Below, piece by piece: positions 1 to 61,125 of a stretch of 64,000 nucleotides of DNA. The position numbers and the translations under genes are program-made. Under the pieces are notes generated by a model. That model ran no database searches. It saw only the letters and a program-made list of their open reading frames with translations, and was not told where the DNA came from. Source of the stretch: Patellaria atrata CBS 101060 (lineage: Eukaryota; Ascomycota; Dothideomycetes; Patellariales; Patellariaceae). Within the stretch, counting starts at the first letter, position 1, and every line of letters starts with the position of its first letter. The stretch covers positions 4,123 to 68,122 of the forward strand of contig MU006102.1 in the NCBI GenBank assembly GCA_010093705.1. Direction: 5' to 3'.

Positions 1-1187
1 ATGGAGTATATGGTTGAACGAGATTTGCCATGTTAGAAGAATAGAGTTCTTAGCTTCGTGGTCTCTTCGAAGACGGCCTCCCTCGTAGTCTAATAAGCTT
101 GTCTTTTTCCTGTCGCTCTTGTAGAACTGGTCTAGATACTGCCGTACTGAACATCTTGGTGCCCGTTGTCGGATGTATGCAGCCGCCTGCACAAGAGCGA
201 GTGGCATGAATTCGAGCGCTGTCGCCAACTCGGCTATACAGTCATCGTCTATTCCCTCCCCAAGTTTCTTTCGTAGGAGACTTTGCGCACCTATATTACC
301 CATCGGCTCGATGGTTATAATATCGGGGTCCTCGACCAACTCCAGCGCCGTACTCCTTGTCCGACTAGTGACCATAACCGCGCCGTTCTTGCTCGGGGGC
401 AAATAGGATACGAGGTGCCGTTGACGAGCGCGATCTCCGCCGCTAGCTTGTATCTTATGACTATTGCTCGCTTGTAGAGAGAGACTAACGGCATCGTCGG
501 CATTATCGAGGACTAGCAGCCACTTGCCGTTCTTCTCGTTGCGAAGCCAGCTAGAAACGAGCTCGAATATATCTGCTTGTGGGTCTTTCCGACCAGCCAG
601 CTTGACTTGGTCCGCGATGGCTCGGTAGCCTTGGTCGACCCGGGCCGCGTTGCTGGCGTGAACCCAAAATACCCACGTCTCCGGCGATCGATCTGCGGTT
701 CGATAGCAGTGCTCGATAGCAAGTTGCGACTTCCTATCCCTGCGTTAGGTGCGAGGACTAGGCCGAGTATTTTCTCCACTTACCCCACGCCACCGAAGCC
801 GACTAACGCTATACGAGATGCCGGCGTAGAGCATTTCTCGTGTATCTGATCGAGTAGCGTGCCACGATCGACGAAGTCTGGGTCACGGCGAAAGGGGACG
901 TTGCAGGAAGGGCTCGGCGGGGTCTCCGGTCTCTCTATTAAGACGGCGGGATGTTAGTAGCCTTTCCGTAGAATATGGAGTTACTAGCAACGACTCACTA
1001 TAATGGATATTATAGGTTTCTGTCACGGAGCCTGACTGAAACTTAGCATGAAAAACATATCGCTGCAAATAAGAGACATACCGATTAGCTGTGCATTGCC
1101 CGAGATATAACCGGCTACAGCGCCACTGTTGCTAGAGATAGGGCCAAACTCGACGCCCGTCGGGATTGCTGTCACGTTGCTGGCCAT
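1..1187 (-). CDS. NB-ARC NOD-like receptor (NLR), 5' part, runs off the left edge
   Basis: Fungal STAND/NLR-type signal-transducing NTPase, the class used in non-self recognition and programmed cell death. I read four exons: 1187-1082, 1031-999, 934-784 and 733 to beyond position 1. The three introns (51, 64, 50 nt) all have GT donors and AG acceptors, and the frame is open throughout (341 residues visible). About 60 N-terminal residues are rich in Gly, Asn and Ser (ISGNAQLIG near residues 29-37). They are followed by the linker PETPPSPSCNVPFRRDPDFV and then NB-ARC. The P-loop is GFGGVGKSQLAIEHCYR, cut by intron 3 just before Lys. The Walker B region is WLLVLDNADD, and further on come VMVTSR and MPLALVQAA. 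The C-terminal repeats (usually TPR or similar) lie outside the window. A pogo transposon begins about 180 bp upstream. The NB-ARC identification is firm; the role of the N-terminal segment is inference. Confidence 0.88.
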
Positions 1188-1440
1188 TACTACCGCAGAG
1201 GGTTATACATACAAGAACTAGACACTATGCTAGCATGTTTAGGCAAGTAAAAAAAACATAGGGTACTTTGAATGAGTCGGCTTAAACATCGTAAGACTGC
1301 GCTCGAGTGCGTGGGTGAATTTCCTTAAGGGTCTTGTTCAGGCTGTGCACGGTTTCAAAGCGTGCACGGTCGCCACCAAAATTTAGTTCTCACGTATCCG
1401 GAGAATAATAAGGACTACTTTTTACTCCACCACCACCAAT

Positions 1441-3613
1441 ATGACTCCTATTGAGGCCGCGCTTGAGAGTCTAAAGCTTCAAGATATCCCTAATATAACA
1501 CAAACTGCAAAAGAGTAAAATTGTGACCGCACGACGTTGTCGCGGCGTTTTCGTAATGTCACTGTTTCCCGCGAGGTAGCAATCGAAAACTCTAAATTAA
1601 TGACCGAGGAGCAGTCTAAAACACTTATTAAATATATCAATCGATTAACTGATCGTGCTTTCCCTCCTACGCCTGCAACTGTACGAAATCTGGCCGGCCA
1701 TATCGTTGGAAAAAGACCTGGAAATAGCTGGGTTACGAGGTAGTATGGGCGCTAAGGAGATCAGCTCAAATCTGGTTATCTCAGTCCTATTGATTTAGCC
1801 CCTCATAAGGTCGATCAGGGACCGTTTTACAAGCTCTATTTCGAGCTCCTTGGGCGTAAGCTCGATAAGTTTAGTATCCTACCAGAAAATACGTACAATA
1901 TGGATGAACAGAGCTTCCTCATAGGTATGCTTAAAAAGTCACGTAGGATTTACAGCAAAGCTGCTTTTGAAGGTGGGAGGGTCAAGGGAATCGCATAGGA
2001 CGGAAATCGGGAGTGGATTACGATCCTAGCTACTGTGAGATTGTGGGTAACTGAATGCAGTCGCTTGATTCTCCGTACAACTACGGATTCTATCTAGTGT
2101 TTATATAATGACAGACCACCTTATTGATTAACCCTTTGACGTCACAAAGCCTAGCTACGTAATCTCCAAATCAAGGCGAACATAACGATACTACCTACGT
2201 CAGATATAAAATAAGAGATGACATCAAAAGAGTGAGCTAATGTTATAGTTTTGATGACACTTAACCGATAAGTCGGAGCCGAGCACTTAGCTCTGAAAAT
2301 CTCCAACACGAACTCCTAAAGATCCTGACGATCTTCCAATATAAGGCTATCGGGGATCAGCCATCTGACAGCTACTATCTGTCCAGATGGAACAGCTATC
2401 CCTCCTGGGATCATCTACCCCTCGATATCAGGAGCGATGCAGGATACGTGGTTAGAGGGCTATCGACCGAAAGAGCAGGAGTGTTTTTTTACTGCTTCAC
2501 CGACAGGATGGACTAATGACGAGCTCGGATTGAGGTGGTTGGAGACCGTTTTTGACCGTTCTACTAAAACCAAAGCTAGTCGAGCTTGGAGGCTTCTTAT
2601 CGTCGATGGCCATGGCTCCCATATCAATATGCCTTTTTTGAAGTATTGTATAAGCAATAAGATCATATTAGCAACTATCCTCCTCACTCTACGTATAGAT
2701 TGCAGTCCCTCAACGTCTCCTTATTCTCTCCTCTCGCCACGTATTAGTCAAAATCTCGACGACTTTTTAAGCCGATCACAGGGCATATCGAATATTACAA
2801 AACGGAACTTTTTTGAGCTATTCTGGCCCGCTTACCAGAAGGCTTTTACAGAGAAAAACATTCTAGGGAGCTTTAAAAAAACAGGTATCTCTCCATATAA
2901 TCCGAGTGAAGTGCTACAAGGATTAGCAAAGCCGGAGAGGCAACCAGTTAGTCAAATAGGCGGTAGACTAAGCTCAAGTGAATCAGCTAAATCAGTGTTA
3001 TCGGAGAAAGATTGGAAACGTATAGAGAAGAAACTAGAGACCGTTGTTTCTGATATAGAACTAATGCACCCTGTCGTCGAAGAACATGAAGGCGAAGTTT
3101 CAATTTCTCTCTACCTCTAATACTATCCCCCAACAACAGAACTTCGGTTTAATTAAGGCTCTTGATGGCGAGAAGAAGCGACGTAAACGGCAGAAGCCTT
3201 TTTTACAACGAATAATTAGCATAGAGGATTGTGGCGCGGTGTTTTGGAGCCCTCAAAAAATTACCCAAGCGCGCGATTTCGTACGGCAAAAGGAGGAGGA
3301 TGAAGCTGCAGAAGAAGCTAGTAAAGTAAATAATAAGCTTCAGGAACAGCTACTTAGAGAGGAGAAAGAAGAACAAGCTAAAGAGCGCAAGATTCAATGA
3401 CAAAAAGATAAGGAGAGGGAGAGGGTAGCTGAGGCAAAAAACGCTCAGCAACATATTACTGTAGAAGCCAAACAAGCTAAACAAATAGCTCAAAAAACAC
3501 GTAGACCCCCTCAACAGCCGAAGCAGAAGAAGCGGATTGTTATACCACCAGCTATAGAACTTTTAGATAACATTATTGAGGTAGTAGAGGTAGAAACGGT
3601 GTTACGGCCATAG
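1441..3613 (+). pseudogene. Pogo/Fot1 DDE transposase remnant
   Basis: Remnant of a transposase with N-terminal psq/CENP-B-like helix-turn-helix DNA binding and a C-terminal DDE catalytic core. From 1441 the HTH part is recognisable (MTPIEAALESLKLQDIP, then TTLSRRF, then LIKYINRLTDRAFPPTPATV). The first catalytic Asp sits in YNMDEQSFLIG (about 1900). The second is in LLIVDGHGSH (about 2595-2625). Where the third Asp is expected (LQxLDVxLFxPL) the sequence reads as LQSLNVSLFSPL in another frame, so it appears to be Asn. The tail contains the family signature GAVFWSPQKI (about 3235-3265) and a charged coiled-coil-like segment. Breaks include a stop in the HTH (about 1516), a frame change after 1741, a stop near 1996, a double shift around 2680-2735 and a stop near 3398. 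A solo LTR interrupts it at 2034-2370. Confidence 0.88.
2034..2370. mobile_element. Solo LTR of an LTR retrotransposon, inserted in the pogo transposase
   Basis: A 337-bp block begins TGTGAGATTG and ends CCATCTGACA, the TG...CA ends and short inverted repeat expected of an LTR. It is flanked on both sides by the 5-bp duplication GCTAC (2029-2033 and 2371-2375). The transposase coding sequence on either side (ILAT before, ICPDGTAIPPG after) is contiguous across the block, which confirms a precise insertion. There is no internal region, so it is a solo LTR left by recombination. Family (copia or gypsy) cannot be decided from the LTR alone. It is younger than the transposon it interrupts; absolute age cannot be estimated without a partner LTR. 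Confidence 0.82.
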
Positions 3614-51774: not shown

Positions 51775-54700
51775 ATGGAGAATCGGAACGCAGTCACAGA
51801 ATCAGTACACGACCCTGAAATATTTTCGAACACCTCCGCCCCTAGGCCTGATGAACAACAGTCCCCGAAGGTGGAAAACTCTTTAGGGTCCGCTCAACAG
51901 ACAGCAAACAATGCTAGACCCGAGGTAAGGAGGCCTATAGCGGGTAGGAGGTTATCTTCAAACCCTGGCTCGAGCAGAAGGCGCTCAACGCAGGGCAGGT
52001 CGCTTAATGATCTATATAACGACGTGAAACAAGGACTTGGAGCAGATGTAAAAGTGAAGAATCGGCTCCGCGTAAGTTTGAAGGACATTCTCAGTCATTT
52101 GCGATTTGTTTACGATAATAGGCGAGCCCAGGGGAATTAGGTCTACGAACTCTCTACCCGAGACAGAGCGCTACTGAAACCGAAGTAGATCTAGTTTTTG
52201 TACATGGATTGGAGGAGAATGCTAGTCAAACCTGGGGAATGGATCCTAATCAACCTGTGGAGGAAGAATCGGTCGTTCCCGAAACTCCAGTTAGAACCTG
52301 GCTTTCATATCATGGCATGCTTCCAAGTGCCATGCCTAAAGCGCGCATATTGCGTTTCGGCTACGATTATCAAGACCTAAAACAACCTACTTTGGCTAGC
52401 ATACGCTCAGTCGTCGCAAGAACCCTTCTTCAAGAGCTTAAAACTTATAGAGCGCGCCCAACACCAGAGTACAGATGGCGACCTATCATATTCATCGGCC
52501 ACGGATTTGGTGGTATCATAATTGAAGGCGTTCTAGCCCTTGCTAATGGCTCTATGTCCCATGTGATCACCCATTCGCCGATAGAAGAGACTTTATCACA
52601 TCAATCCGAAGATGTTGTCAAGTCAGAGTCGAACTTAGACATACTAAGGTCTACGATTGGAGTAATATTCTTAGCCACCCCTTTTATGGCTACAAATGCT
52701 GTCTTGAAGATATGGCGCTCTCGTGAGATTGGATGTGATAGTTCGGATTCACAAATCCGAAAACTGAAAAATAGCCATTTTGCAGCGCTAAGTGATGGGT
52801 CAGGAACGTCTGTACAAGCTAAATCCACGGAGACTCCAAACCCGCAAACGGCCAGAGCAGGGCCTCCATCTGGGAACGTCTTCAAGCATATTCGTTCCAG
52901 CCTCGACTTTTTAGCCTCGCAGTACAACATTGAATTGGTGTGCTTTTTCGAAGAACAGAAGGACATGGATTTAGAGAAGCTTTCTTCTCTTCAGGTATAC
53001 AGATGTTTTCATTCTTAAAAAGTGTCTGATATTAAGCTAACCGGAATTTCAGGTCATCTTAGATAAGAGGTCTAGCACACTTGACAATTACCAACACATC
53101 GGGCTACCTGTAACTCATACAGCTATGTCAAAGTTTTATGGTACAAAAGACCCCAACTATAGAAAATTCCTTAATGTGCTTCAAGACATAGAAAGTAATA
53201 TTCCGACGCGCCGGTTATGGCATAGCATATCTATCAGAGCTAATATTCAGGGCCTGCTAGAAGTCCCGGGAGTGAATGTCAATAAACAAGACAATCAAGG
53301 CGGAACTGCTTTGCACCTAGCTGCGGGATTCGGCGCTTCTCAAGCAATATTTCCGCTGTTACGCAAAGGAGCTGACGTACGTATCAGAGATTTGAACGGA
53401 AACACTGCATTAGACATCGCCAATCTAGTTGGTAATGAGACCGTAATCAAATACCTAACGGAAAATGCGTCGGGCGAATATTACAAATCAATACAGACGA
53501 TACCAGGGCAAGAAGCCGATAATGAGGTGGATTTCAATAAGTGGAATTACGGCCTGAAGGACGTCGAACCATCCGTCGAAGAATGCCGTAAAAAGGCTTG
53601 TATAGGGTTCCATGCCAAAGTCACATGTTTTTCTCCCTCAAGAACTCATCCTCTATTCCGCTATCAATGGAATCCTACCGTTTATGATGCACTATACGAC
53701 CCTTCTCATTCCAATATGCTCCCATTTCGAGATGGCGTCCTTCGTCGAGCAGATACACTAAATCGCGAATCCAAAACTGCAATGCAAGCGTCTCCAGACT
53801 CCGAATCTACTATAGGGTCTATACGTGAAGTTCACAAAGAGAACTTCACATGGTACCATCTCCCAGCTAACAACATCGTTTGGGTTAAAGTAAGCATACA
53901 AGACCAATTTTCCCTTGATTTGACTGTTAATGTGTATAGATTCTACTAAAAAGGATCCTACGAGAAGAGGTATTGCCTTATGAGATGAAGACAATCATAC
54001 ACAAGTTGAGTGGGCAACAACACCGTGGTCATACACCGTTTTCGCACTACATGAGAGCTGGATGTGACGTAGTGGAAATACCATCCTCCATAAAGCTAAA
54101 AGCTACTACTGAGGCGAGTGATCCGAGTCCTCCAGAGGTCAAAATAGCTTTGAATTCGAAGCACACATATGGAAGAAAAGGTGATAGCAAAGTCCCCAAA
54201 CAGCGGGAAACCGACATTGCTCTAAAATTATTCGTGAGTCCCACAGACACATCAATTTTTTCCTTGATTGAAGATCAAATCAACCCCGAGATTGCCTATT
54301 CTGATTAACGAATACGAATGATCTATTCTTCATGTAACCACAACGTTGTCTTCATATATACGATGAATTTCTAACCCAGAATCATAGATGCCATATTTCC
54401 ATTTTGAATCTATGCACGCCAGAGAATATTTGATGGACAGTATCCATTCGGGCGATGCTGAAAGTTTGGTTGATAAACCGAACGAAAACTTTTGCGAGAA
54501 CACCGATTTACTGCACGCTCATGAGACTCTTTTGAAAGGTTATCTAGACCTCGAACAAACTTATTCAAATTCGAAACGTACACACTCGGAGCTCCATATG
54601 CGACGGTCGCTTGACCAGTTTTATTACCATGCACTTGATAAGGACGATATTAGGCGTCGCGACGAAGACCAAGTTATGTACAAATGGTATAAGGAAAATA

Positions 54701-56310
54701 AGTTAGCTGAGTCTTACAGTGCATATAAAGAACAAGGAAAGGATAAAATTGAGGCAAACGATATCATGACTGAAGATGAATTTATTAGAAAAGACTGCAA
54801 AATTGTCATGGTTGACCAGTTATGGTGCTGGATAATTGGTGATCGTAAGTTAATGCTCGAAGAGGAGAATCAGGTCTGCCACTAATTGTTCAGATACCGT
54901 GATAACGAGCTTCCCAGAGGCGGCTGAGGTTACGGACGAGAACATCATAGACAAGATCGAAAAAGAGATTGAACGTTACGACACCAGCTCATTGCTGACG
55001 ATTGGAAATTTTGCTACTGTAATCATGAATTGCGCTGCTGGGTTCTTGGACCGATTTCGTGCGCCAACCATACTGCCAATTCTGGATGCGTTTGATCTCA
55101 TGATAAGCAAAGCAGTATGCGGTCCTTACAATATCACTTAGTCCGGTATAATTATCACTAACTCTTTCTCAAATAGCTGAAGCATGAGATGGATATGTTC
55201 GACGCGTTCAAAGAGCAAATAAAGAAATCGGAAGAAGAACAAGAATCTGGGAAGCGAAACGTCGAGATTCCGTTTAAGTTGTCTGTACGGAGCGAGGTAG
55301 AAAGGCTAAGAGACATCAAAGATATTAAAGACGAGTTGAAGATCATACAACAAGTTCTAAACCAACAACTTGACGTTGGAAACTCCTTTCAATCACTTGG
55401 CGGCGCGAACCTAAGCGCTGTGAAAGCTCTTTACGGCAGGGTTGCTTGTCTGGATAAGGAGGAATTTATCTCGCGAAAACTGACGCACATCGAAGACGAC
55501 GTAGAAGATATCAAGCGTATCACTAACCCACAGAATAGCTTTCCGCTCACTGATAACGTAACGGAGGAGCCGCAAGAGTCGGAGGAGCAACCTGATATTC
55601 AAAGCTTTCATAGTCAGGATGCAGATACGCTATTGAACACTATCAAAGACAATCTCAAGGCGGTGGATCTAATGTTATCTCAGGCCGAGGAAGCACATCA
55701 CGCTTTGAAACTTCTACTCAACTTAAAGCAAAAGCAGGCGAACGTGCAAGAAGCGAGGGCGACACGAGAAGGCGCTGAAGACACTGCTAAACAAGGAAGA
55801 GCTATCATGTTATTCACCATCATCACAATCGTCTTCCTACCCCTGTCTTTCCTCTCGTCCTTCTTTGCGCTGAATGTCCGGCAATTCCCTCATGAAGGTG
55901 CCGACGAGGGTGAACCGTTATTCGATCTCTCATGGGTCGCTGGTTGGATCTTCGGAATCAGCGCCGCTTTCATCTTACCTGCAATCGTCGGAGCGCTCAT
56001 TTTCGTAGATCCACAGCGAGTCGAGCTCTTATTATTGAGGGCTTGGATGCCTCGGTTGCTGACCTTCTACGCTTTTCTTTTGAGCGGTGTTTGGTATGTT
56101 ATTACCTTCGGCCCTTGCAGAACCGCGGGCAGAGGATTGAGGGACCGGAGAGTCCGTAGGAAAAGGGAAAAACGGCGTTACGATTTGGAAGCTGTTTCGG
56201 TGTACGATGAGAACTTCAAGACTGCAATAGAGGAAGTGGAAAGTATGAGGAAGAGTCTTGAGAGTAGAAGGGAGAAAACCGGGGCGTCACAGAATACGGA
56301 TGAAAAATGA
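51775..56310 (+). CDS. Alpha/beta-hydrolase - ankyrin - CorA-like membrane fusion protein
   Basis: Seven exons (51775-52071, 52122-52994, 53053-53889, 53940-54233, 54388-54844, 54894-55114, 55177-56310) join in frame to 1370 residues, all with GT-AG introns. After a disordered N-terminus of about 110 residues comes a DUF676/PGAP1-like hydrolase: DLVFVHGLEENASQTWG, IIFIGHGFGGIIIEGVLALA and TIGVIFLATPF. The elbow is GHGFGG, with Gly where the nucleophile Ser (GHSxGG) would sit. Residues about 420-520 hold ankyrin repeats (DNQGGTALHLAAGFGASQAI, DLNGNTALDIANLVGN). Then come a central domain (MPYFHFESMHAREY, KIVMVDQLWCWIIG), a coiled region, and two C-terminal membrane spans (AIMLFTIITIVFLPLSFLSS, then SWVAGWIFGISAAFILPAIV). 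FFALN replaces the GMN motif of true CorA channels. This suggests a membrane-bound sensor or effector; the activity is unknown. Confidence 0.88.
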
Positions 56311-57908: not shown

Positions 57909-59473
57909 ATGGGGCTAGGTAAGCGTCTTTCACTATGATTCTTGAAGATATCACAATGTGCTAATGCAGAGAAATCTTAGGTGGATACCTTACATTACTC
58001 AATGCATCACCGTACGACTGGACCTTAACAAATGCACATCAATACCAGATGTCGGCCTGGTCGTGGCCACAAACTGTTTCCGCAGGTTCGTATACCTAGC
58101 CACATCAGATACGGTATGCAGATCTGACCTTGTCTAGGCACATCAACTGCAGTGTACGTAGAATGGGGTTCTAGAGGAAACAGACGCGATGATGCTGGAG
58201 AAGCATACTATACACTGAAAGGGACCCCGGATAAATTCACCGTTCGTGCAAGTAACAAAGATTTCATGGATATTTTTGTCACCCTCGACGGTATCGAGTC
58301 CCAGAACAACCCCAGGGGGAGCAAGATTGATATCGGCTTTGAGCACGACGGGCATAAAAACTTCCTACTTTCGGGTCCTGCGGGGGATTATGTCTCTAGC
58401 AATCCTCCAGTTGATTGGATGCAGCAAAATATTGGTACGCTCGGTAACCGTAAACTCCGACATATATGTATGCCCGGGAGCCACGATGCCGGGATGAGTA
58501 CTTTCGGGAAAGGAACTGCATTTGTTACTAGGCAAAACACGTTGACTCAAGTTCTAAATATATATGATCAACTCAAAGCAGGGTCAAGATACCTTGACAT
58601 CAGGCCAGTCATCAGTGGAGGACAGTTCTTCACCGGGCACTATTCCGAGTTTCAAGACACTTGGTTAGGGGTGAATGGACAATCCATAGCAGACATCATA
58701 AGTCAGATCAATAGGTGAGGACCTTCGGTTCGAGAGCTGTAATGTTGATGCATGACACTGACCTGCTAAGATTTACCAATGAATACAAGGAGTTGGTTAT
58801 ACTGGATCTATCTCATGCTATCAATACGGATCAAGATTACCGGAACTTCAATCAGGGGGAGTGGAATCGGCTCTTTGACCAACTTAAAGGACTTAACAAC
58901 CGCCTTGTTAATGCAGTGACAGATAATACCGATCTTACTCAATGGCCGCTGCACAACTTCATCGGTGGTAACAAAGCATCAGTGCTCATTGTCGCTGACA
59001 TGGCGGACGGTACCAATCCTGGAAATTACAAAAAGGATGGCATCTTCAACAGACCAAATTTTCCTGTGTTTAACAGTTACGCCGACTCGAACAATGCTGG
59101 AGACATGGCTTCCGATCAGTTACGCAAGCTTAAAGACAATCGCAATGTAGTGTCATCCGGAGGGAAAGACGGGTTCTTCCTTCTATCATGGACACTGACA
59201 CAGCAAGAAGCGGACGTTCTCAATCCCGTCATCTGGATCCTAGATTTTGCAGCGAGAGCATTTTCACCTCTGTTCTACCAAGCGTTTAATTCAATATCAC
59301 CGACCTCCTTCCCGAACGTCCTATTCATAGATCTCTTCGGGCTAGATGATAACCCCTATAATCGCCTAGATCCGGAAGCACCACCCCGTACCTACACTGT
59401 CAGCAGAGATGTTGCTGCTATGGCTATGGCTGTGAATCACATCGCAGGAAAGAATTCCTTCGTCACTGGCTAA
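57909..59473 (+). CDS. PI-PLC X-domain (PLC-like phosphodiesterase) protein
   Basis: Four exons (57909-57918, 57972-58085, 58138-58714, 58771-59473) join in frame to 467 residues. The N-terminus (MGLEILGGYLTLLNASPYDW) opens a beta-sandwich-like region. The TIM-barrel X domain runs from about residue 170: ICMPGSHDAGMSTFG with the first catalytic His, SRYLDIRPVI, and FFTGHYSEF with the second His, then LVILDLSHAIN and VLIVADM. Both catalytic His and the RYLDIRP strand are kept. There is no signal peptide, no Y domain and no C2 domain, so it resembles bacterial-type or fungal stand-alone PLC-like phosphodiesterases. Substrate (phosphatidylinositol or GPI) is not certain. The first exon carries only ten coding bases. 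Confidence 0.85.
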
Positions 59474-60012: not shown

Positions 60013-61125
60013 ATGAGGGACACACAGATTACAAAATTCTTCGGACCATATGATCGCAGAAGTGAGAATTCAGGGACAAACTTTCGAGAAGGACATCCAC
60101 ATAAGAAGCGCTTTAGAAGTAAACGTCAAATGGCACTTTCGGAAGTATGCAAAGAAACCTTAGAGATTCTTCCTGGCATCATCGAGCAATTACCCATCGA
60201 CTTTACAACCGCCTCAATACATAGTCTAAAAGGACTTGGGTCTCTAGATCCTAACAAATGCCCGAAATATTCGCCTGTTACCGTGGACTTAGTAGATACA
60301 GATTCGTATGATACTGCTGTAGCTTTGCAGGATTCGCTAAACGAACAGGTCCACGGAAAAGTTGCCGTTGCTAAGAGCCCGTCTAATTTACAACCGGTCA
60401 CAGTCCTTAATCTTGCCTCAGAAGTGAGAGCAGGTGGCGGCTAGCTCAATGGCTCCATGGCGCGGGAAGAGGAGCTTTGCTACCGCTCCTCGCTCTACCT
60501 CTCCTTAACCTCCGCGTCTCATTCTAATTATAAGGAAGATCTATCAGTAAATCAACCGGTGGATGAAGACAACAACGACCACCCCGAACCCTCAGCATCC
60601 ACCTTCGGCGCAAACTCCGCCGAAACCGCAACCCACAACCGCCGTCCCCGCAAACAAAACGGGTTCTTTCCCCTCCCGTCCATCTCCGCCATCTACTCTT
60701 CCGCAGTTCTCATCATCCGTTCCTCCCTCAGCACCAGCCACACGCTCCTCATCCCCCAGACATCTGCGTTCTCCTTCCCCACCGTCTCCGTCATTTCCGT
60801 CGCGGCCCTCCGTCTTGCCCCCATTTCCGCAACCGGCGGATTTGAGAACCCCGACGACCGCTCTGCTGCGAAAGCGAAGATGCGATTGATGCTTCGTGCC
60901 GGGGCGCACGAGGGTCATTCAAAGCTTGTCCTCGGGTCAATGGGCTGCAGAGCGTTTAGGAACCCTGGGAAGGAAGTGGCATTATGTTGGCGGGAGGTAC
61001 TGCTGGAGGAAGAGTTTGCTGGAAGCTGGTGGGAGGCACTGCTGTTTGCGGTCATGGATTCGAGACACCGTGATGGGGAGGTGGGAAATCATGGTATATT
61101 TGCGGAGGAGTTGGAGGGGTCGTGA
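60013..61125 (+). pseudogene. Microbial-type poly(ADP-ribose) glycohydrolase (TIGR02452 family) with an in-frame stop
   Basis: One frame spans 60013-61125 (370 codons) with a single TAG at 60442-60444. N-terminal helical part: RQMALSEVCKETLEILPGII. The macrodomain core follows: VTVLNLASEVRAGGG, directly the TAG, then LNGSMAREEELCYRSSLYLS, FFPLPSISAIYSSAVLIIRS and VSVISVAALRLAP; the tail has RLMLRAGAHEGHSKLVLGSM. In bacterial-type PARG the catalytic loop is GGG...QEE; here it is GGG...REE, so the catalytic Glu stays but the Gln is Arg. The stop sits where the family usually has Trp, so a TGG to TAG change (G to A) is the likely cause. The rest is undamaged, so the loss is recent or tolerated. 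Intact, it would remove ADP-ribose chains from proteins. Confidence 0.8.

What the first reader, a model, noticed from the sequence alone, without database searches (positions are those of the whole stretch)
51775..56310. Hydrolase-ankyrin-CorA-like fusion that looks like an NLR-free membrane sensor/effector
One intact 1370-residue reading joins a DUF676/PGAP1-like alpha/beta-hydrolase, ankyrin repeats, a conserved central domain and a two-span CorA-like C-terminus. In fungal NLRs the same hydrolase often sits before NB-ARC and repeats. Here the NTPase is absent and the repeats are coupled to a membrane module. Two active-site features are altered: Gly replaces the nucleophile Ser (GHGFGG), and FFALN replaces the GMN ion-selectivity motif. 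This suggests a binding module and a non-canonical channel or pore and not an enzyme plus Mg transporter. The link to self/non-self recognition is inference, helped by the NLR and HET loci in the same window.
Basis: partly seen in the sequence, partly recalled or inferred. Interest (0 to 1): 0.75.

Follow-up and report, generated by a model that had tools for sequence, protein, structure and literature searches.

The report
Fungal hydrolase–ankyrin–CorA membrane fusion protein
A fungus of dead wood carries a gene that joins an apparently disabled lipase-like domain and ankyrin repeats to a complete but non-standard magnesium-channel-type membrane unit; relatives with an immune-receptor motor between these parts suggest a membrane sensor or effector of self/non-self recognition, which is untested.

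Summary

Proteins from Lachnellula and Venustampulla have the same parts with a NACHT-type ATPase between hydrolase and ankyrin repeats. The hydrolase triad is intact in 2 of 9 CorA-fused rows and 21 of 21 others. In Morchella, a CorA-like gene maps to vegetative incompatibility (PMC8940278).

HET linkage inside the window is near chance (about 21%). Best reading: a signal-gated CorA-fold membrane effector with a pseudo-hydrolase sensor. The architecture is well supported; the function is inferred. No expression or transport data were available.

The parts
51775..56310 (+). whole gene, 7 exons: 51775-52071, 52122-52994, 53053-53889, 53940-54233, 54388-54844, 54894-55114, 55177-56310; 1370 aa
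   Evidence: residues 139-1370 identical to P0002
51775..52071 (+). exon 1, residues 1-99, disordered-looking N-terminus; an upstream exon is needed because exon 2 begins with conserved sequence right after an in-frame TAG, but this particular exon has no homology support
   Evidence: sequence; homology starts at residue 103
52122..53217 (+). NLR-type (SesB/DUF676-like) alpha/beta-hydrolase domain, residues about 100-445 (intron 52995-53052 inside)
   Evidence: homology to P0125, P0003 and hydrolases of NACHT-Ank proteins; AlphaFold2 model of exon 2, pTM 0.71; Foldseek and VIA matches to hydrolases
52503..52505 (+). Gly227 codon (GGA) at the nucleophile position (GH-G-FGG)
   Evidence: at least 2 substitutions from every Ser codon
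52950..52952 (+). Glu376, presumed catalytic acid, retained
   Evidence: column assignment by alignment; role inferred
53116..53118 (+). His412, presumed catalytic His, retained
   Evidence: column assignment by alignment; role inferred
53218..53487 (+). short ankyrin-repeat block, residues about 446-535
   Evidence: Pfam Ank_2 457-528, 35.7 bits against cut-off 27.3
53539..56007 (+). complete CorA-fold protomer, residues about 553-1270, with insertions: cytosolic alpha/beta domain, long stalk helix, two membrane helices (introns 3-6 inside)
55798..55860 (+). TM1, residues about 1201-1221
   Evidence: hydropathy peak, end of the long helix in the model
55864..55875 (+). F-A-L-N at the place of the (F/Y)GMN motif, residues 1223-1226
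   Evidence: aligned with GIN of CmaX 7nh9
55927..56007 (+). TM2, residues about 1244-1270
   Evidence: hydropathy, helix in the model

Best explanation
The gene encodes a membrane protein in which a catalytically disabled NLR-type alpha/beta-hydrolase domain and ankyrin repeats are the input side, and a complete CorA-fold protomer with a non-GMN filter is the output side. Proposed mechanism: five copies assemble through the CorA fold (inferred from the fold). A ligand, partner protein or lipid binds the pseudo-hydrolase and ankyrin part (inferred). The strain passes through the CorA cytosolic domain and stalk helix and opens or disturbs the membrane pore (inferred, by analogy with CorA gating and the CRISPR CorA effectors), as a response to non-self or stress. 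Shown here: gene, domains, predicted fold, loss of the nucleophile, subfamily-wide loss of GMN, and homologs with a NACHT-type domain inserted between the same parts. Inferred: pentamer, gating, conductance, ligand, and any role in recognition.
Against: No expression, localisation or transport data. The nearest homologs P0125 and P0003 keep the full triad, so the pseudo-enzyme state is not shared by all proteins of this architecture. The nine hydrolase-CorA proteins are not one clade on the CorA tree (AU p 0.018; long branches are in play), so the NACHT-bearing proteins may come from separate fusions. Counted by rough lineages set by eye, the triad contrast gives only p 0.06. In Morchella, barrages also occur between strains with the same mimpvic32 allele, and whether that protein belongs to this subfamily was not tested. 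Window linkage to HET is at chance level. Models have moderate confidence (pLDDT 70-72), and Foldseek TM-scores are low (hydrolase 0.37/0.40, CorA part 0.20/0.40).
Confidence: 0.4

Rival explanations
1. Membrane-tethered scaffold: the CorA fold is only an oligomerisation and membrane anchor. In homologs with an intact triad (P0125, P0003) the hydrolase is a lipase-type effector held at the membrane; in Patellaria it is a dead version that binds without cutting, or a decoy. No ions flow.
For: Two of nine CorA-fused rows keep the whole triad. The filter motif is degenerate across most of the subfamily, including FAIP forms without the Asn. SesB-like lipase domains of NLRs are proposed to modify the plasma membrane (PMC4986451, passages).
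Against: The stalk end and TM1 (positions 621-678 of the 771 in A2) hold 4 of 8 invariant and 16 of 38 nearly invariant positions, more than an anchor alone would seem to need; 7 of 9 fused hydrolases have lost triad residues.
Confidence: 0.25
2. Ordinary divalent-cation transporter of the fungal CorA expansion: ankyrin and hydrolase parts only regulate or localise it, and ALN still passes Mg2+ or another metal.
For: CorA fold complete. The family handles several divalent cations (PMC6972854, abstract and passages). The solved CmaX has GIN at the aligned place. Genome papers annotate CorA-like genes as Mg transporters and report expansions (PMC3897900, PMC10694956, passages).
Against: The Gly, and in some rows the Asn, of GxN is lost in most of the subfamily. 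Far below the corA equivalog cut-off. The genome has other CorA loci with GMN. NACHT fusions are odd for a transporter.
Confidence: 0.25
3. A decaying gene: the hydrolase has lost its Ser because the gene is on its way out.
For: One copy in one genome; Ser227Gly with otherwise kept surroundings; no close relative at hand to test selection.
Against: 1370 open codons, six good introns, conserved family positions kept; Gly needs at least two base changes from any Ser codon; loss of triad residues recurs in other CorA-fused lineages.
Confidence: 0.1

Closest known systems
Fungal NLR-type proteins with SesB-like/DUF676 hydrolase, NPHP3_N (NACHT-type) and ankyrin repeats (e.g. P0061 Hymenoscyphus fraxineus, P0066 Cylindrodendrum hubeiense)
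   Same: Homologous N-terminal hydrolase and ankyrin repeats, in the same order
   Different: No NTPase in the window's protein; a CorA unit follows the repeats; nucleophile Ser is Gly
Hydrolase-NACHT-Ank-CorA proteins P0004 (Lachnellula arida) and P0005 (Venustampulla echinocandica)
   Same: Hydrolase, ankyrin and CorA parts in the same order and homologous (P0004 compared directly; P0005 collinear with P0004)
   Different: They carry NPHP3_N above cut-off, and P0004 a sub-cut-off winged-helix match; their hydrolase lacks the HG loop and the His column; FAIQ at the filter
Hydrolase-Ank-CorA proteins P0125 (Tricladium varicosporioides) and P0003 (Cadophora sp. M221)
   Same: Same architecture; grouped with the window's protein on the CorA tree (100/100 for P0125, 93/90 with P0003) and on the hydrolase tree (96/92 and 92/96); FFALN
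   Different: Catalytic triad intact, GHSFGG
Fungal Ank-CorA family without hydrolase (P0007, P0011-P0014, P0016, P0126-P0138; own-genome L026 reading)
   Same: Homologous CorA unit, in most rows with WxHLPxNN and VDQLW, and a non-GMN filter
   Different: No match to the hydrolase profile (for L026 no hydrolase in Pfam); more ankyrin repeats in those scanned (L026, P0126, P0137, P0012, P0011)
CorA/Mrs2/ZntB 2-TM-GxN channels (4i0u, 2iub, 7nh9, 5n9y)
   Same: Fold of the protomer
   Different: GxN not met (ALN); large insertions; extra N-terminal domains
CRISPR type III CorA effectors activated by SAM-AMP (PMC10600005, passages)
   Same: CorA-type membrane part fused to a larger signal-receiving soluble part; possible way of working
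   Different: Bacterial; ligand SAM-AMP. Only a weak match to PADLOC's CorA-like model over the TM part (E 9e-4; that this model stands for the CRISPR CorA is my assumption). No evidence of common descent beyond the CorA superfamily

Membership tests
Fungal NLR (STAND NTPase receptor) | NACHT or NB-ARC nucleotide-binding domain | tested here: not met
   No NTPase domain of this kind among Pfam matches up to E 1 in the 1370-aa protein; the only ATP-binding-protein name is a helical-domain chance match at E 0.91
Fungal NLR (STAND NTPase receptor) | N-terminal effector-type domain (here SesB-like hydrolase) homologous to those of NLRs | tested here: met
Fungal NLR (STAND NTPase receptor) | C-terminal superstructure-forming repeats | tested here: inconclusive
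   Ankyrin present, Ank_2 above cut-off, but short and central, not C-terminal
CorA / 2-TM-GxN Mg2+ transporter | CorA protomer fold with stalk helix and two TM helices | tested here: met
CorA / 2-TM-GxN Mg2+ transporter | GMN (GxN) motif after TM1 | tested here: not met
   FALN
CorA / 2-TM-GxN Mg2+ transporter | NCBI corA equivalog cut-off (TIGR00383, 200.75 bits) | tested here: not met
   15.1 bits for P0002; the model is made for prokaryotes
CorA / 2-TM-GxN Mg2+ transporter | homopentamer and divalent-cation transport | not testable with these tools
   needs biochemistry
SesB-like / DUF676 serine esterase | alpha/beta-hydrolase fold | tested here: met
   exon 2 only, pTM 0.71, TM-scores about 0.4; the stretch with His412 is not in the model
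SesB-like / DUF676 serine esterase | nucleophilic Ser in GxSxG | tested here: not met
   Gly227
SesB-like / DUF676 serine esterase | acid and His of the triad | tested here: met
   E376 and H412 by alignment columns under three settings; roles inferred
SesB-like / DUF676 serine esterase | Pfam DUF676 / Abhydrolase_6 / PGAP1 cut-off | tested here: not met
   no match up to E 1; the nearest homologs P0003 and P0125 match weakly, below cut-off
CRISPR type III CorA effector | binds SAM-AMP, linked to type III CRISPR | not tested
   eukaryotic gene; a weak PADLOC CorA-like match over the TM part only

The most novel reading that the evidence does not exclude
Ascomycetes have co-opted a CorA-fold, non-GMN membrane unit as an output module of nonself recognition, fused to NLR-type hydrolase and ankyrin parts with or without the NACHT motor. 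In these fusions the hydrolase tends to lose its catalytic residues and becomes a sensor. This would be a fungal counterpart of the bacterial CRISPR CorA effectors, and the CorA-like vegetative-incompatibility gene of Morchella would be a genetically mapped member.
Probability: 0.33. Interest if true: 0.85.

Novelty: new variant of a known kind. Interest (0 to 1): 0.62.

Why it matters
Genome papers count fungal CorA-like genes as magnesium transporters and explain their expansions by mineral supply (PMC3897900, PMC10694956, passages). If an ankyrin-linked, non-GMN branch is instead a membrane output of recognition receptors, those expansions may need another explanation, and fungal immunity gains a channel-type effector class beside the pore-forming domains already known. 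The NACHT-bearing homologs, the repeated loss of hydrolase residues and the Morchella mapping make the idea directly testable in laboratory fungi.

Tried and rejected
Pfam alone does not detect the hydrolase in this protein; it was reached through homologs and folding. PDB sequence searches with alignments A2 and A3 showed only ankyrin-repeat chains among the 60 rows listed, because full-length rows brought their repeats in; not used. phmmer of exon 2 against the PDB gave no match below E 0.4. A protein search with the hydrolase region alone gave four hits, one of them the protein itself. A single origin of the hydrolase-CorA fusion was tested and rejected on the CorA tree (AU p 0.018; long branches are in play); on the hydrolase tree the CorA label needs two changes. 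The idea that FALN marks this gene as special was rejected. The idea that HET and NLR-like loci in the window support the function was rejected as near chance. Metagenome and viral scans and dN/dS were not done: no close fungal relative was at hand. The homolog survey is bounded by the search tool: one search listed 120 of 129 hits, one search gave 26, and only proteins of 0.55 to 1.75 times the query's length are candidates.

Literature on 'not described': (listings; passages opened) showed no paper in the held library describing an NLR/NACHT-CorA or hydrolase-Ank-CorA protein as such; not every listed paper was opened. The term 'cora' also caught 'coral', so searches were run as whole words. 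A WD-Ank-CorA gene, AN6960, appears as a domain note in PMC5371717.
Full report
WHAT WAS CHECKED. The stretch 51775-56310 reads as seven exons with six GT...AG introns and gives 1370 residues with no internal stop. The protein search returned the same protein from Patellaria atrata CBS 101060 (P0002, M501DRAFT_222725), 1232 residues, identical to residues 139-1370. The public model starts at the first ATG of exon 2 and loses the first hydrolase strand and the HG loop. The longer reading is better: Tricladium P0125 aligns from residue 103, and the triplet before exon 2 is an in-frame TAG, so the conserved start of exon 2 must be reached by splicing. Exon 1 itself has no homology support.

THE TWO ALTERED SITES. 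Position 227 is GGA (Gly). Every Ser codon is at least two changes away, so one sequencing error cannot explain it. In 30 hydrolase rows (25 of them already) the Ser-acid-His triad is intact in 2 of 9 rows that also carry CorA (P0125, P0003) and in 21 of 21 rows that do not, under three MAFFT settings. The losses differ: the window's protein lost only the Ser; four metagenome rows have Gly and lost the HG loop and the acid; P0004 lost the HG loop and the His column; P0005 the same plus Ser to Cys. The four metagenome rows are near-copies and P0004/P0005 are sisters, so this is about three lineages of five against none of about six, Fisher p 0.06: suggestive, not firm. The rows came from searches with the window's protein, and the lineage counts were set by eye.

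At the filter, 41 family rows were examined. Two (P0015, P0017) gave no match and were dropped; of the remaining 39, 5 have GMN (P0139, P0140, P0143, P0145, P0148) and 34 do not (FALN, FALD, FTIN, FAIP and others). Those five carry no ankyrin among their precomputed Pfam domains (three scanned again). The window's FALN is therefore ordinary for its branch. Of the 8 CorA loci fetched from the same genome (one search found 13 matches), L001, L003, L004, L005 and L007 keep GMN, L008 overlaps L003, L002 has GQN, and L006, the ankyrin paralog of L026, has TIN. CmaX 7nh9, a solved CorA-type protein, aligns GIN at the same place.

RELATIVES. Same architecture: P0125 and P0003, grouped with the window's protein on the CorA tree (100/100, then 93/90) and on the hydrolase tree (96/92, then 92/96), and four metagenome proteins P0006 and P0008-P0010. 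With a NACHT-type domain between hydrolase and ankyrin repeats: P0004 (Lachnellula arida) and P0005 (Venustampulla echinocandica). These two are collinear in two blocks (48% identity over 1-764, 69% over 769-1827), which makes a mis-joined gene model unlikely. Both exceed the Pfam cut-offs for NPHP3_N, Ank and CorA; PF05729 NACHT itself passes only in P0004. P0002 matches P0004 on both sides of the NACHT. The nine hydrolase-CorA rows do not form one clade on the CorA tree (three changes; AU p 0.018), so fusion or loss happened more than once, or long branches mislead. I therefore do not claim that the NACHT was lost from this very gene. The genome search found one ankyrin-CorA paralog without hydrolase (L026).

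SETTING. [quoted passage not shown] Of 35 other window readings of 150 codons or more, 22 were scanned with Pfam; none showed a defence family at the threshold used. A HET match lies at window 10242-10718. The window's first 744 bases (minus strand) resemble the start of a reading on contig C3 whose later part carries DUF7779 and TPR; the window's piece has no Pfam match of its own. Both lie more than 40 kb from the gene. With 103 HET matches (exon-wise) in 28.3 Mb, 0.23 are expected per 64 kb, so at least one in about 21% of such windows. This does not support the reading.

OUTSIDE EVIDENCE. In Morchella importuna, bulk segregant analysis mapped vegetative incompatibility to two closely connected scaffolds with 23 genes; the gene mimpvic32, with two alleles 92.6% identical and most variation in the C-terminal regions, encodes a PF01544 CorA-like protein (PMC8940278, section 15). 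The authors also saw barrages between strains with equal alleles, and the second candidate, mimpvic33, has no known domain. In bacteria, CRISPR type III CorA proteins bind SAM-AMP and presumably disrupt the membrane (PMC10600005, passages). SesB-like domains are predicted lipases of fungal NLRs (PMC4986451, passages).

READING. Most likely the protein is a membrane sensor/effector: pseudo-hydrolase and ankyrin input, CorA-fold output. Architecture, predicted fold, loss of Ser and the subfamily's loss of GMN are shown by sequence and models. Pentamer, gating, permeability, ligand and role in recognition are inferred. A plain metal transporter and a non-conducting membrane scaffold remain live rivals.

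Noticed in passing
window 51775-52535: The public gene model M501DRAFT_222725 starts 138 residues late and misses the first hydrolase strand and HG loop.
   Followed up: yes
window 10242-10718 (+): HET domain match with one in-frame TAA inside the aligned stretch, E 3e-21; intron or broken gene not decided.
   Followed up: partly
window 1-1327; L025 692-2016: The start of the window is 91.9% identical to a stretch near the end of contig C3; there the reading goes on into DUF7779 and TPR matches, so this looks like a duplicated piece of an NLR-like gene.
   Followed up: partly
L025:2523-3389 (+): A SesB-like hydrolase reading with AHSLGG and intact triad columns near the end of contig C3.
   Followed up: partly
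L026:1214-4651 (-): Own-genome ankyrin-CorA paralog in one 1146-codon open frame, filter FTIN, no hydrolase in Pfam.
   Followed up: yes
window 2329-3117 and 15103-16350 (+): A DDE_1 transposase match and an Exo_endo_phos match; the second suggests a non-LTR element.
   Followed up: no
P0003 (Cadophora), residues about 1265-1340: Long extra hydrophobic stretches after TM2 by eye, so some relatives may have more than two membrane spans.
   Followed up: no
P0139, P0140, P0143, P0145, P0148: A sub-branch of the family keeps FGMN and has no ankyrin among its precomputed Pfam domains (three rescanned); what their N-termini are is unknown.
   Followed up: partly
P0005 (Venustampulla): Cys instead of Ser at the hydrolase nucleophile place (GHCIGG), in a protein that also lacks the His column.
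   Followed up: no
window 58128-59470 and 60445-61122 (+): Downstream readings with no Pfam family at 0.001 (58128-59470) and a partial PARG_cat_microb match (60445-61122).
   Followed up: no
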